Positions 17,294 through 21,394 of a stretch of DNA of 64,000 bases are shown piece by piece. How positions within the stretch are numbered: position 1 is the stretch's first letter; every line of letters starts with the position of its first letter. A program made the position numbers and the translations under genes. This stretch comes from Nitrospinaceae bacterium (lineage in GTDB: Bacteria; Nitrospinota; Nitrospinia; Nitrospinales; VA-1): the NCBI GenBank assembly GCA_021604505.1, contig BQJC01000001.1, forward strand, positions 124,001 through 188,000, read 5' to 3'. The notes beneath the pieces were generated by a model. The model saw only the letters and a list, made by a program, of their open reading frames with translations, was not told the DNA's origin and searched no databases.

Positions 17294-17899
17294 TCGAGTT
17301 CGATTCTATTTTCAGGATAAAATTTAAGAGTTCGGCCAGGCCCCTTGGAAGATGTTATTACGCCTTATAACACAATCTCTTCCAGATAGTGCGTTACCCT
17401 ACAATATACAGGAAATTCCTGCAAACAAATAACAAGGGGTGGCTTAGAGCCGGAGGGGAACGGTTTCGAAGAACGAAAGGGCTATTAAAAAAGGAGGATG
17501 GATTTGGTTAATTTCCGTACCAGCCTAGGGCTGGATCAAATGTTAACGTGCGATGGACTTTCTGCCGACACATCCAAGTTTCGACTTAGGGGTTCGAACT
17601 ATTTCGCCGAACCTCCACCAGCCTGCACATGGCTCTGGTCACGCTTTGCGCCTTATGACATACACTCGGCCTTATGATGTTCTACAGTTTTCTACTCCGG
17701 AGGAATGCAAGACTTCCTGTCTCTCCTAAGGAATTGAAAGAAAGAGGGGTAAAAGCAAATCGACGTGTTGAAGGTTGTTTTCAAGTCTTGGTCTGGTAAA
17801 CTTTGTTTCAAGGCAATGATCTGGCCTCCTTCCTTAATAAGTGGCACCCCAAATTAGAGCAGGTCAAGGATTTGGTGAAATTTTACATAAGGATTTTCA
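17294..17899. other. 606-base intergenic region with repeat copy 2
   Basis: No gene is evident. Upstream of the DASS start a nested hairpin is visible around 17345-17388 (TGGAAGA...TCTTCCA around GTTAT...ATAAC). A small palindrome CAGGAAATTCCTG follows. Repeat copy 2 occupies 17520-17556, and GGTTCG/CGAACC forms a hairpin at about 17580-17602. The last 100 bases are AT-rich and give the DUF262 gene an AAGGA ribosome-binding site. Confidence 0.45.
17520..17556 (+). repeat. Interspersed repeat, copy 2 (left flank of DUF262 gene)
   Basis: It begins with the perfect palindrome CCAGCC-TAG-GGCTGG and ends GTTAACGTGCGATGG. It is identical to copy 3 at 20306-20342 over 37 bases except one (T versus G at 17541/20327), in the same orientation 2.8 kb away. 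Confidence 0.85.
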
Positions 17900-20155
17900 A
17901 TGAGTGAAACCCTTTTTAAACAAGTTAATTATAATCTTGGCAATTTGATAGAGTATATCGCACTTGGAGAAATTGGCCTTCCAGACCTTCAACGCCCCTT
18001 CGTTTGGAAAAACGCCAAAGTTCGAGATTTGTTTGACTCTATCTATCATGGATTTCCAGTTGGCTATTTTCTATTTTGGCAGAATGCCTTGGCGGATGGC
18101 ATCAAACCTATAGGAACTGATCAAAAACAAAAGGTTTCCAAATTGCTTATAGTAGATGGCCAACAGCGACTGACCGGGCTGTATGCGGTCATTAAAGGGG
18201 TGCCGGTTGTAAGAGAAAACTATAAAAAAGAAGTAATTGAAATAGCCTTCAACCCCCTTCTAGAGAAGTTTGAGGTGGCCGATGCCGCAATACGAAAAGA
18301 CAGATCCTATATCTCCTCCATTTCAAAAATATGGGGCGATAATACAAATATTTTTGCTCTTGTCCGCCAATACCTTGAAAATTTAAAAGCATCACGGGAA
18401 ATTGAAGCAGAGGAAGAAGAAAGGATACAAAAATCCTTTTCAAAGCTTATTAATATCTTGAGTTTTCCATTTACAGCTCTGGAGTTGTCAGGTAATACCA
18501 ATGAAGAGCAAGCTCAGGAAGTCTTTGTTCGAATAAATAGTAAGGGTAAGCCACTAAATCAAGCGGATTTCATACTCACTTTGATGTCTGTTTTCTGGGA
18601 CGAAGGCAGAAAACAGTTGGAAAAGTTTTGCCAAGAAACCAGAATGCCTTCCACCGGACACGCTTCTCCTTTCAACTATTTTATAGAACCCGATCCAAAC
18701 CAACTATTAAGAGTGGCGGTTGGTTTGGGTTTTAAAAGAGCCCGGTTGAAATATGTTTATTCCATCTTGCGAGGAAAGGATTTGCAGACAGAAACATTTA
18801 GCGAGGAAATACGAATTCAACAATTCGAAGTGCTAAAGAAGGCTCAAGAACAAGTTTTGAATCTTCAATATTGGCATGATTTTATGAAAGTTTTAATTCA
18901 AGCAGGATATCGAAATGGCCGAATGATAAGTTCGGAAAACAATTTGCTGTTTTGTTACACCTTATATTTGAAGGGCCGCATTGAATATAAGGTGGAAGAA
19001 TTTGATCTTCGCCAGGTTTTGGCTAGATGGTTTTTTATGTCGAGTATGACAGGTCGATACACAAGCTCCCCAGAATCCACGATGGAATCAGATTTAGCTA
19101 GATTCAGAGACGTTAAAACCCCGGAAGAGTTTCTAGAAACACTGAAGCAAATTTGCGATGAGACCCTAACAAGGGATTTCTGGGAAATTACTCTTCCCAA
19201 TGAATTGGCGACCTCCTCTCCTCTGAGTCCCTCGCTTTTTGCCTATTTCGCCTCCTTGAATCTCTTGGAAGCCAAGGTATTGTTTTCCAATTTGAAAGTT
19301 TCGGAGTTATGTGATCCGACAATCAAAGGGAAAAAGTCCTCATTAGAACGGCATCATTTGTTTCCTAAAGCCTATTTAAAGTCTTTAGGAATTTCGGACA
19401 CTAGGGATATTAATCAAATTGCAAACTATGCTTTAGTGGAATGGGGGGATAATGTAAATATCTCAGATCAAATTCCCGCACAGTATTTCCCCAATTTAAA
19501 AGAACGATTTTCCTTAAAGAAATTGGAGCGTATGTGTTATTGGCATGCACTTCCAGATGACTGGGAAAACCTGGAATACCGCCAATTTCTAATTCAGCGT
19601 AGAGAATTAATGGCTAAAGTGATTAGTGATGGTTATCACAAACTATGCTCTGGAAAGAAAGAGGATAAGTTTGAGGCTTCAAATATTTCTATTGAAGAGT
19701 TGGTGTCTGGCGGGGAGACTACAGATGTGGAGTTTAAATCCACCTTGCGGACCAATTTGCATACGGGAGAGAAAGACCCCAGGATGGAATATGATTGCCT
19801 AAGAACCATTGCGGGACTTTTAAACCGTCAGGGAGGTAAACTAATTATAGGGGTGGCTGATGACGGTGATCCTGTGGGGATTGAGATAGATGGTTTTCTC
19901 AATGAGGATAAGATCTATCTTCATTTGGTGAATATTATTAAAGAGCGATTGGGTTCCCAATTTATGCTTTATATCCATCCCAGATTTGACGATTATCAAG
20001 AGGTACGAGTCTTGACTGTGGAATGTTGGCCTTCCAAATCTCCGGTATTTCTTAAAGATGGGAAGGATGAGCGTTTTTATATCAGAACCGGTGCGTCAAC
20101 CTCCGAACTTACAGGAGGTAAAATGCAAGAATATATTAATCAAAAATTTAAATGA
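17900..20155 (+). CDS. DUF262-HNH-AlbA_2 fusion, candidate single-gene defence nuclease
   Basis: 751 residues, three modules. 1-380: DUF262 (GmrS/ParB-like) with LPDLQRPFVW (28-36) and the nucleotide-hydrolysing signature DGQQRL (86-91). About 470-545: HNH/DUF1524-like nuclease, H485-H486-L-F-P and a distal EWGDNVN segment (514-520). About 590-735: Schlafen-type AlbA_2 domain, E611-F-K613 and LLNRQGGKLIIGVADDGDPVGI. DUF262 plus DUF1524 is the architecture of GmrSD, SspE and BrxU-type anti-phage nucleases; the added AlbA_2 domain is unusual. No methylase or partner gene is adjacent. AT-rich relative to neighbours and bracketed by repeat copies. The start has AAGGA 7 bases upstream. Confidence 0.88.
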   Translation: MSETLFKQVNYNLGNLIEYIALGEIGLPDLQRPFVWKNAKVRDLFDSIYHGFPVGYFLFWQNALADGIKPIGTDQKQKVSKLLIVDGQQRLTGLYAVIKGVPVVRENYKKEVIEIAFNPLLEKFEVADAAIRKDRSYISSISKIWGDNTNIFALVRQYLENLKASREIEAEEEERIQKSFSKLINILSFPFTALELSGNTNEEQAQEVFVRINSKGKPLNQADFILTLMSVFWDEGRKQLEKFCQETRMPSTGHASPFNYFIEPDPNQLLRVAVGLGFKRARLKYVYSILRGKDLQTETFSEEIRIQQFEVLKKAQEQVLNLQYWHDFMKVLIQAGYRNGRMISSENNLLFCYTLYLKGRIEYKVEEFDLRQVLARWFFMSSMTGRYTSSPESTMESDLARFRDVKTPEEFLETLKQICDETLTRDFWEITLPNELATSSPLSPSLFAYFASLNLLEAKVLFSNLKVSELCDPTIKGKKSSLERHHLFPKAYLKSLGISDTRDINQIANYALVEWGDNVNISDQIPAQYFPNLKERFSLKKLERMCYWHALPDDWENLEYRQFLIQRRELMAKVISDGYHKLCSGKKEDKFEASNISIEELVSGGETTDVEFKSTLRTNLHTGEKDPRMEYDCLRTIAGLLNRQGGKLIIGVADDGDPVGIEIDGFLNEDKIYLHLVNIIKERLGSQFMLYIHPRFDDYQEVRVLTVECWPSKSPVFLKDGKDERFYIRTGASTSELTGGKMQEYINQKFK

Positions 20156-20207
20156 CCTATTCAGAGATAAACAAAAAACTGTAAATACATAAGAAGATAC
20201 AGAGCAA

Positions 20208-20235
20208 CCACTGATTTTTATTCAGTAGGTTTTTT
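20208..20235 (+). terminator. Intrinsic terminator of the DUF262 gene
   Basis: ACTGA (20210-20214) pairs with TCAGT (20222-20226), extended by flanking C/G pairs with one bulge, and six T follow at 20230-20235. It lies 55 bases after the stop codon. Confidence 0.65.
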
Positions 20236-20265
20236 GTTATTCAACTGTGAAAAGGCAGTTAAAAA

Positions 20266-20308
20266 TCCCCCTCAAGAGGTCGGAGGTTCGATCTCCCGAG
20301 CCCCTCCA
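20266..20308 (+). pseudogene. Degenerate tRNA 3'-end-like fragment
   Basis: The stretch contains a T-arm-like GGAGGTTCGATCTCCC, then GAGCCCCTCCA, resembling an acceptor strand plus CCA. The T-loop is out of register by one base and no matching 5' half is found, so it is not a working tRNA. Such 3' fragments are typical attachment-site remnants of integrated elements. It abuts repeat copy 3. Confidence 0.35.
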
Positions 20309-20342
20309 GCCTAGGGCTGGATCAAAGGTTAACGTGCGATGG
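20306..20342 (+). repeat. Interspersed repeat, copy 3 (right flank of DUF262 gene)
   Basis: CCAGCC-TAG-GGCTGG palindrome then GTTAACGTGCGATGG, one mismatch to copy 2. The following GTTTATG matches copy 1 (2686-2732) rather than copy 2. Confidence 0.85.
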
Positions 20343-20383
20343 GTTTATGACTGCAGGAGGTTTTCCGGGGCGCGTGAGCGAAG

Positions 20384-21394
20384 CTAGCCTTGCTCCACTT
20401 TTCCTCCCCGCGTTGCGGGGTCCACCTGGGAGATGGTCCACAAATCACAGGACCCACAGATGTCCCGGTAGTTTTCCCTGAAATCGTTGAATCCGTCGCT
20501 TTGCCAGATATCGTCAAGGTTCTGGTCGAGCATGTTGCCCATTTTTGCTTCCGGCAAAAGACAGCAGGGGGTGACGTTTCCTTCCCGGCTGATATAGGCA
20601 TTGTCAAAAGTTTTCAGGCAATACTTCCCGGATCGGTGCAGTTTTTTGCGCAACAGCTGATAGGCGAATCTCGTGATGCCCTTGGAAACCGAATACTGAA
20701 TCCAGTCCAGTTGCACGCCTAAAGAACGGGCGATACGATTGGCGTTTTGAAAAATGCGCTCCTCCTCCTGAAGGTTCGGGCGTTTCAGGCTGGGGGCGTA
20801 TTTTCGATCCAGACGGCCGACATTCACCACTTCACAGCCGATTTTTCCCGCATATCGGATCACATCGTAAAGATCATTTTCGCAGTCCGCATGTAAGGTC
20901 GATTGCAGGCGGAGCGACAGAGATCCTTTTTTCCGCATTCGGGCCAGGGTTTCGATATTCTGGTAGACCCCGTTGTTGTTGTGACCTTCCTCGGCGCTGG
21001 TGCTTCCCTCCACTCGGTCTATTGAAAACGTCAGAGTGTTCAGGCCGGATTGCAGAATGCGCTCTATGATTGACGGTCTGGTGAACAAGCCGTTGGAGGT
21101 GATCATGACCTTGTGCCCCCGGTCCTTGCAATGGGCGATCATGTCGAAAATTTGGGGATGCAGAAAAGGTTCGCCCCAGCCGGTCAGAGTGACGTCCTCT
21201 TTGACGAGCAGTTGGCCGACCACCGCCACGAATTTGTCCCAGTCCATATGCTCCAGTTCGATTTCCAGGTCTTCCCTGGGGCACATGGAGCAGTCCATAT
21301 TGCAACGGTTGGTTACCTCGATCTGGATATGGCGGGGTTTCCGGGGGATCTTGTAAATCAACCGGTTAAATGTGTCGAGGGCTAGATGGAGCAT
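20384..21394 (-). CDS. Radical SAM/SPASM domain protein
   Basis: 336 residues. The N-terminal radical SAM motif CNMDCSMC (31-38) binds the 4Fe-4S cluster that cleaves S-adenosylmethionine; the GWGEPFLHP motif follows. The C-terminal SPASM-type region has further cysteines (GKYCLKTFDNAYISREGNVTPCCL, DICGSCD) for auxiliary clusters. Members modify peptides, proteins or small molecules; no peptide substrate gene is apparent next door. The gene stands alone between the DUF262 region and leuC and is transcribed away from both. Substrate unknown. Confidence 0.88.
   Translation of the reverse strand: MLHLALDTFNRLIYKIPRKPRHIQIEVTNRCNMDCSMCPREDLEIELEHMDWDKFVAVVGQLLVKEDVTLTGWGEPFLHPQIFDMIAHCKDRGHKVMITSNGLFTRPSIIERILQSGLNTLTFSIDRVEGSTSAEEGHNNNGVYQNIETLARMRKKGSLSLRLQSTLHADCENDLYDVIRYAGKIGCEVVNVGRLDRKYAPSLKRPNLQEEERIFQNANRIARSLGVQLDWIQYSVSKGITRFAYQLLRKKLHRSGKYCLKTFDNAYISREGNVTPCCLLPEAKMGNMLDQNLDDIWQSDGFNDFRENYRDICGSCDLWTISQVDPATRGGKVEQG

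What the first reader, a model, noticed from the sequence alone, without database searches (positions are those of the whole stretch)
17520..20342. Solitary DUF262-HNH-AlbA_2 fusion bracketed by direct repeats
One 751-residue protein joins a DGQQR-type DUF262 domain, an HNH/DUF1524-like nuclease and a Schlafen-type AlbA_2 domain. DUF262 plus DUF1524 is known from GmrSD, SspE and BrxU, which cut modified or phage DNA. The added AlbA_2 module would give a second nucleic-acid-binding or cleaving function in the same chain. The gene is AT-rich, has its own terminator, no methylase partner, and lies between two 37-bp repeats with one mismatch in direct orientation. This looks like a self-contained, recently acquired anti-phage gene.
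Basis: partly seen in the sequence, partly recalled or inferred. Interest (0 to 1): 0.75.

Follow-up and report, generated by a model that had tools for sequence, protein, structure and literature searches.

The report
GmrSD-like restriction enzyme with Schlafen domain
A recently acquired bacterial gene encodes one protein that joins a known type of virus-DNA-cutting enzyme to a domain like those that cut tRNA in animal antiviral proteins; this fusion arose at least twice and is probably an anti-phage defence.

Summary
Window 17900-20155 (+) encodes 751 aa: a GmrSD_N/DUF262 domain, a GmrSD_C-like HNH region (recognised by motif and by its match to BrxU, not by Pfam) and a C-terminal Schlafen AlbA_2 domain. 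All three active-site signatures are intact. Full-length relatives (51-67% identity) occur in at least five named phyla and one viral contig; about half sit beside restriction-modification (types I, III, IIG-like) or Hma genes. The fusion is nested among two-domain DUF262-HNH proteins, and a second, separate lineage also acquired AlbA_2 (joint origin rejected, AU p 7.7e-5). The domain keeps the Schlafen E/E/D triad under purifying selection. The gene is AT-rich and absent from all four congeners; one has an empty site, three a PAS/GAF gene there. The 37-bp repeats belong to a genus-wide dispersed intergenic repeat and the left copy predates the insertion, so they are not shown to be attachment sites. 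Best reading: a GmrSD/BrxU-type, NTP-gated DNA nuclease with an added Schlafen-type RNase effector or, nearly as likely, an added nucleic-acid-binding module. New variant of a known kind; no paper found in the open library describes this fusion.

The parts
17900..20155 (+). CDS, 751 aa, DUF262 (GmrSD_N) - HNH (GmrSD_C-like) - Schlafen AlbA_2
   Evidence: full-length relatives 51-67% identical
17954..18577 (+). GmrSD_N/DUF262 domain, residues 19-226
   Evidence: Pfam E 2.8e-32; BrxU aligned by sequence, E 3e-16 with profile A1
18155..18169 (+). DGQQR motif (residues 86-90), predicted NTP site; the LFDS motif (residues 44-47) lies upstream
   Evidence: invariant in A1, A2 and in all 35 rows; motif roles from PMC4619093 and PMC8565348
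19352..19453 (+). HNH motif region, H485 H486 ... N509 ... N518
   Evidence: invariant in A2; weak PF07510 hits in relatives; spacing as in GmrD
19715..20110 (+). Schlafen AlbA_2 domain, residues 606-737
   Evidence: Pfam E 9.8e-16; Foldseek to SAMD9 tRNase domain 9o0d, SLFN14 and SLFN13
19715..19861 (+). Schlafen-type acidic triad E606, E611, D654 (also K613)
   Evidence: profile alignment to SLFN14 puts E606/E611/D654 on E206/E211/D249; E606, E611 and K613 in all 19 clade A and B rows, D654 in 18 of 19
17620..20421 (.). approximate acquired segment, absent from congener G001
   Evidence: window-G001 alignments: clear homology to 17582, weaker to about 17619, resuming at 20420
17520..17556 (+). 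left 37-bp repeat A, ancestral copy of a dispersed intergenic repeat
   Evidence: orthologous diverged copy at G001:C4:83173-83209
20306..20342 (+). right 37-bp repeat A copy, 36/37 identical to the left copy
20358..20421 (.). second dispersed intergenic repeat B; dozens of copies in congener G004
20264..20304 (+). decayed copy of the 3' end of tRNA-Ala(CGC)
   Evidence: 82-83% identity to three places on C2 of the same genome, one of them the full tRNA-Ala gene
17591..17622 (+). short dispersed motif C (GGTTCGAACTATTTCGCCGAACCTCCACC), also beside a tRNA-Ala 3'-end copy on C2

Best explanation
A horizontally acquired anti-phage effector of the GmrSD/BrxU type. The DUF262 (ParB/Srx-fold) domain binds and hydrolyses NTP and helps recognise foreign or modified DNA, and this gates the HNH domain, which nicks or cuts that DNA. 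The added Schlafen AlbA_2 domain carries the E/E/D acidic triad of SLFN and SAMD9 RNases and most likely acts as a second effector on structured RNA such as tRNA, set off by the same NTP and DNA-sensing cycle, so that an infection that escapes DNA cleavage ends in translation arrest. It resembles one Schlafen lobe, so two copies would have to meet in a GmrSD-type dimer to form the tRNA-holding valley. Shown here: domain order, intact motifs, two lineages of the fusion, purifying selection, recent acquisition, restriction-gene neighbourhoods of relatives. Inferred: anti-phage function, substrate, NTP gating, RNase activity, dimer assembly.
For: Domains and motifs. Fold match to BrxU and, for the C-terminus, to the SAMD9 tRNase domain and SLFN14/13. 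Triad E606/E611/D654 aligned with SLFN14 E206/E211/D249; the matching residues of SLFN13 are needed for cleavage (PMC5862951) and those of SAMD9L for antiviral action (PMC11221667). AlbA_2 under purifying selection (dN/dS about 0.07 for L016/L017, 0.10 for L019/L064). Convergent recruitment: joint clade of the cores rejected, p 7.7e-5, and of the AlbA_2 domains, p 0.0008. Relatives next to type I HsdR (L015), type III MTase+REase (L016, L017), IIG-like MTase + HKD/SNF2 helicase (L014), HmaABC (L019), Eco57I MTase + AAA (L020). Sporadic distribution across distant phyla.
Against: No activity was tested. AlbA_2 is also a DNA/RNA-binding domain and the E..EFK motif may be kept for folding or binding; D654 is N in L014. 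In SLFN13 the RNase unit has two lobes, here there is one. One relative (L097) carries a RAMA domain in the same C-terminal position, which suggests a reader slot rather than an effector slot. The window copy has no restriction partner, and four of the eleven clade-A relatives with neighbours to read (L012, L013, L018, L021) have no restriction genes next door.
Confidence: 0.45

Rival explanations
1. Same GmrSD-type DNA restriction enzyme, but AlbA_2 is only a nucleic-acid-binding or targeting module that helps find the substrate, comparable to the RAMA or DUF4357 modules seen in the same position in other family members.
For: A relative (L097) has RAMA in the same C-terminal slot; GmrSD proteins with DUF4357, DUF4268 or DNA_binding_1 are published (PMC4619093); the SAMD9 AlbA_2 domain was crystallised with DNA (7ksp); AlbA_2 fused to long pAgos is described as DNA-binding (PMC6299218).
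Against: The whole catalytic triad E606/E611/D654 and K613 is kept in both independent lineages, which a pure binding role would not obviously require.
Confidence: 0.37
2. An accessory or stand-by nuclease of restriction-modification or Hma/BREX-like systems that reads their modification status (as SspE does with phosphorothioate), stranded here without its partner.
For: Six of eleven relatives with readable neighbours lie beside methylase/helicase/restriction genes of several types; a two-domain relative lies inside a type I operon (L100).
Against: Partner types differ from locus to locus and the window copy and four relatives have none next door, so there is no fixed partner; the intact window ORF argues against decay after loss of a partner.
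Confidence: 0.1
3. A non-defence regulator or DNA-metabolism protein.
For: Housekeeping neighbours in the window and in L013.
Against: Nuclease motifs, horizontal distribution, restriction-gene neighbourhoods, plasmid and viral-contig relatives.
Confidence: 0.05
4. The gene is a self-contained mobile cassette whose ends are the two 37-bp repeats (attachment sites or target-site duplication).
For: The two copies are more alike (36/37) than either is to any other copy in this genome.
Against: The repeat is dispersed in the genus; the left copy is present at the empty site of G001 and the ancestral sequence continues beyond it; no recombinase between the repeats.
Confidence: 0.05

Closest known systems
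GmrSD family, type IV restriction enzymes (single-chain Eco94GmrSD)
   Same: DUF262 with DGQQR plus a C-terminal HNH region with the E/D-H-N-N pattern; often in defence regions (PMC4619093)
   Different: HNH region too diverged for the Pfam GmrSD_C model; extra AlbA_2 domain; substrate (modified cytosine) untested
BrxU (PDB 7p9k/7p9m)
   Same: best structural and sequence match among solved structures; LFDS and DGQQR motifs
   Different: 18% identity over the structural alignment, low global TM-score, no AlbA_2; BrxU is BREX-linked
SspE
   Same: DUF262 + DUF1524-type architecture, NTPase-gated nicking (PMC10952713)
   Different: only weak N-terminal profile match (E 1.6e-4); no SspABCD seen next to the gene; extra domain
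Hma-embedded candidate HEC-05 (PADLOC)
   Same: best PADLOC profile for the N-terminal 250 residues (E 5.4e-31); relative L019 lies in an HmaABC operon
   Different: matches only part of the 600-aa model; the AlbA_2 region is not covered
Schlafen / SAMD9 RNase domain (SLFN13, SLFN14, SAMD9)
   Same: fold and E/E/D triad of the C-lobe
   Different: one lobe instead of two, bacterial, attached to a restriction enzyme
DUF262-HNH-AlbA_2 clade B (haloarchaeal plasmids, S. meliloti pSymA)
   Same: same domain order, about 25% identical over full length
   Different: separate lineage; the fusion arose independently

Membership tests
GmrSD family | DUF262/GmrSD_N domain with DGQQR | tested here: met
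GmrSD family | DUF1524/GmrSD_C HNH domain, E/D-H-N-N pattern | tested here: inconclusive
   pattern and spacing met and invariant; no Pfam hit in the window protein or its 9 aligned relatives; sub-threshold PF07510 hits in wider relatives; Foldseek to BrxU spans the region
GmrSD family | cleaves modified-cytosine DNA, NTP-stimulated | not testable with these tools
   needs protein and phage DNA
BrxU | encoded within a BREX locus | tested here: not met
   no BREX genes among the window neighbours checked by Pfam
SspE | partner of SspABCD phosphorothioation genes | not tested
   no Ssp-like gene seen next to the gene; the whole genome was not searched for SspABCD
PADLOC HEC-05 | full-length match to a HEC-05 model | tested here: not met
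   best HEC-05 stretch covers residues 10-248 and model positions 25-295 of 600
Schlafen AlbA_2 (PF04326) | domain match above gathering score | tested here: met
   58.8 bits against a cut-off of 25.3
Schlafen-type RNase | E/E/D catalytic triad | tested here: met
   E606/E611/D654 aligned with SLFN14 E206/E211/D249; conserved in relatives
Schlafen-type RNase | two-lobed pseudo-dimeric RNase unit | tested here: not met
   only one AlbA_2 domain per chain; a dimer could supply the second lobe, untested
Schlafen-type RNase | RNA cleavage | not testable with these tools
   needs biochemistry

The most novel reading that the evidence does not exclude
A single polypeptide couples a DNA-sensing, NTP-gated GmrSD-type DNA nuclease to a Schlafen-type RNase, giving restriction plus translation arrest in one chain, and nature built this fusion at least twice.
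Probability: 0.35. Interest if true: 0.7.

Novelty: new variant of a known kind. Interest (0 to 1): 0.47.

Why it matters
GmrSD-type enzymes are known as DNA restriction enzymes, and Schlafens as tRNA-cutting antiviral effectors. A repeatedly evolved fusion of the two would make a testable bacterial case of layered immunity inside one protein. It would also ask whether the AlbA_2 domain, found in many bacterial proteins and usually called DNA-binding, is in fact a nuclease.

Tried and rejected
Repeats as attachment sites or target-site duplication: rejected from the G001 empty-site alignment and the dispersed copies. A tRNA or tmRNA gene at the insertion: Rfam finds none, but a decayed tRNA-Ala(CGC) 3' end lies at 20264-20304. 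A conserved upstream partner ORF in 17557-17899: nothing shared with the relatives' upstream DNA. A joint origin of the two AlbA_2 fusions: rejected for the cores (p 7.7e-5) and for the AlbA_2 domains (p 0.0008; but adding the differently built protein L078 to the group gives p 0.044). A first AlbA_2-domain test was confounded by a mislabelled row (L012) and was redone. Close DNA relatives on plasmids: none. The first AlphaFold model (10 rows) had a poor N-terminus; a 13-row alignment gave mean pLDDT 77.6. Promoter/terminator scan: no more hits than shuffles.

Full report
WHAT IS THERE. Window 17900-20155 (+) is an intact 751-codon gene. Pfam finds GmrSD_N (DUF262, residues 19-226) and SLFN_AlbA_2 (606-737), both well above cut-off. 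The middle region has no Pfam hit in the window protein or in nine aligned relatives, yet it carries the GmrD HNH pattern: H485 H486, then I507-A508-N509 and N518, with the same nine-residue N-to-N spacing as GmrD N169/N178 (PMC4619093). These residues are invariant in the 13-row alignment A2, and wider relatives give weak GmrSD_C hits in the same region (E 0.0002-0.02, below the curated cut-off). The AlphaFold model (mean pLDDT 77.6) matches BrxU best (7p9k, E 7.9e-12 over 647 columns, though with a low global TM-score, so domain placement differs). Its C-terminus matches DIP2311, the SAMD9 tRNase domain, SLFN14 and SLFN13.

ACTIVE SITES. DGQQR (86-90) and the LFDS serine S47 are invariant. 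In the profile alignment to SLFN14, E606, E611 and D654 fall on E206, E211 and D249. The matching residues in SLFN13 are needed for RNA cleavage (PMC5862951) and in SAMD9L for antiviral action (PMC11221667). E606, E611 and K613 are kept in all 19 AlbA_2-bearing rows of clades A and B; D654 in 18. Pairwise dN/dS in AlbA_2 is about 0.07 (L016/L017) and 0.10 (L019/L064), so the domain is under purifying selection. All of this fits an RNase but does not prove it.

RELATIVES. Ten full-length relatives at 51-67% identity came from one scan of GTDB-type genomes: Thermodesulfobacteriota, Bacillota, Chloroflexota, Acidobacteriota, Planctomycetota and a PVC-group bin (L012 is split by a frameshift). One more came from a viral contig (L064) and one from a distant genome (L065). 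Names come from MAG records and may be imprecise. In 387 genomes sampled around this one, two carry the full three-domain clade-A protein (own and G333). Two-domain relatives without AlbA_2 are more common, also on plasmids.

TWO LINEAGES. On a tree of the DUF262-HNH part, clade A sits among two-domain proteins, and a second AlbA_2-bearing group, clade B (haloarchaeal plasmids, S. meliloti pSymA, G006, G093, G321), is far away. Forcing A and B together is rejected (AU p 7.7e-5). The clade-A node itself has modest support (50/81). A tree of the AlbA_2 domains also rejects A+B as one group (p 0.0008), less clearly when the protein L078, which has membrane segments by eye, is added (p 0.044). So AlbA_2 was most likely recruited at least twice. 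A Euzebya relative (L097) has a RAMA domain in the same place, so the C-terminus is an exchangeable slot.

NEIGHBOURHOODS. Gene by gene: L014 follows a IIG-like methylase and an HKD/SNF2 helicase; L015 overlaps a type I HsdR; L016 follows a type III methylase and restriction subunit; L017 lies downstream of type III genes and TGT/OGG/QueC-like genes; L019 follows HmaA, HmaB and HmaC; L020 follows an Eco57I methylase and an AAA protein. L012, L013, L018 and L021 show no restriction genes next door (read by eye from ORFs apart from a few Pfam checks); L064 has a resolvase. L065 lies on a 4.6-kb contig and could not be judged. The window copy lies between a Na/sulfate symporter and a radical SAM/SPASM gene. 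No matched control set was scored, so the enrichment is counted, not tested.

ACQUISITION. The CDS has GC 39.5% and GC3 37.6%, against 52-68% GC3 in the other window genes measured. None of four congeners has it. In G001 the site is empty: homology with the window runs to 17582 (weakly to about 17619) and resumes at 20420. In G002, G003 and G004 the same intergenic space holds a PAS/GAF-type gene of about 480 aa (recognised by eye). So this is a variable site, and the gene was most likely gained here after the split from these species.

THE REPEATS. The 37-bp pair is real (36/37), but it is a dispersed repeat: G001, G002 and especially G004 carry further copies, and a second repeat family adjoins the right copy (20358-20421). 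The left copy is present, diverged, at the empty site in G001, and ancestral sequence continues beyond it. So the repeats do not mark the ends of the insert. Why the two copies are so alike is open: duplication or gene conversion during the event is possible. At 20264-20304 lies a decayed 3' end of tRNA-Ala(CGC); two extra 3' ends of that tRNA lie at 603.6 and 613.7 kb of contig C2, near the full gene at 619.2 kb. The insert may have passed through such a tRNA-linked place; this is inference.

MECHANISM. Known (PMC8565348, PMC10952713): in GmrSD/BrxU/SspE the DUF262 domain hydrolyses NTP and gates the HNH domain, and BrxU switches between dimer and monomer. Inferred: the window protein does the same to phage DNA, and AlbA_2 adds an RNA-cutting effector (0.45) or a binding module (0.37). 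SLFN13 uses a two-lobed RNase unit with the active site in the C-lobe; the single AlbA_2 here would need a dimer partner to build such a valley.

NOVELTY. GmrSD extra domains described in PMC4619093 are DUF4268, DUF4357 and DNA_binding_1. Searches of the held open library for DUF262 or GmrSD together with Schlafen or AlbA_2 found no paper describing this fusion; most subscription papers were not searchable, and one cited preprint on bacterial Schlafens could not be read. I rate it a new variant of a known kind.

Noticed in passing
G000 C2:603631-603676, 613689-613732, 619162-619203 (L112): Three copies of the tRNA-Ala(CGC) 3' end within 16 kb, one being the full tRNA gene: looks like an array of attachment sites; the DNA between holds ankyrin, radical SAM and unknown genes, no integrase found by Pfam.
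   Followed up: partly
window 17520-17556, 20306-20342, 20358-20421; many places in G004: Two dispersed intergenic repeat families in this genus (A about 37-42 bp with a CCAGCCTAGGGCTGG palindrome; B about 64 bp), dozens of copies in G004.
   Followed up: partly
L115 1307-2746, L116 1216-2652, L118 from 1650: The same intergenic site holds a PAS/GAF-type gene in three congeners and nothing in a fourth: a variable site.
   Followed up: partly
L017 4736-7042: TGT-like, OGG-like and QueC-like genes in a row near a relative; recalls the accessory genes of type IV CBASS (from memory, cyclase not identified).
   Followed up: no
L086 (G292 C28:2575-3105), 329-aa ORF: AlbA_2 domain behind what looks by eye like a voltage-sensor membrane segment; L078 and L083 also have membrane segments before AlbA_2, which hints that AlbA_2 is an output domain.
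   Followed up: no
G000 C6:36384-36698 (L002): A second, distant DUF262-HNH gene in the same genome (about 22% identity), without AlbA_2.
   Followed up: no
L097 3983-6115: Euzebya plasmid relative with a C-terminal RAMA domain instead of AlbA_2, near a phosphorothioated-DNA-binding restriction gene.
   Followed up: no
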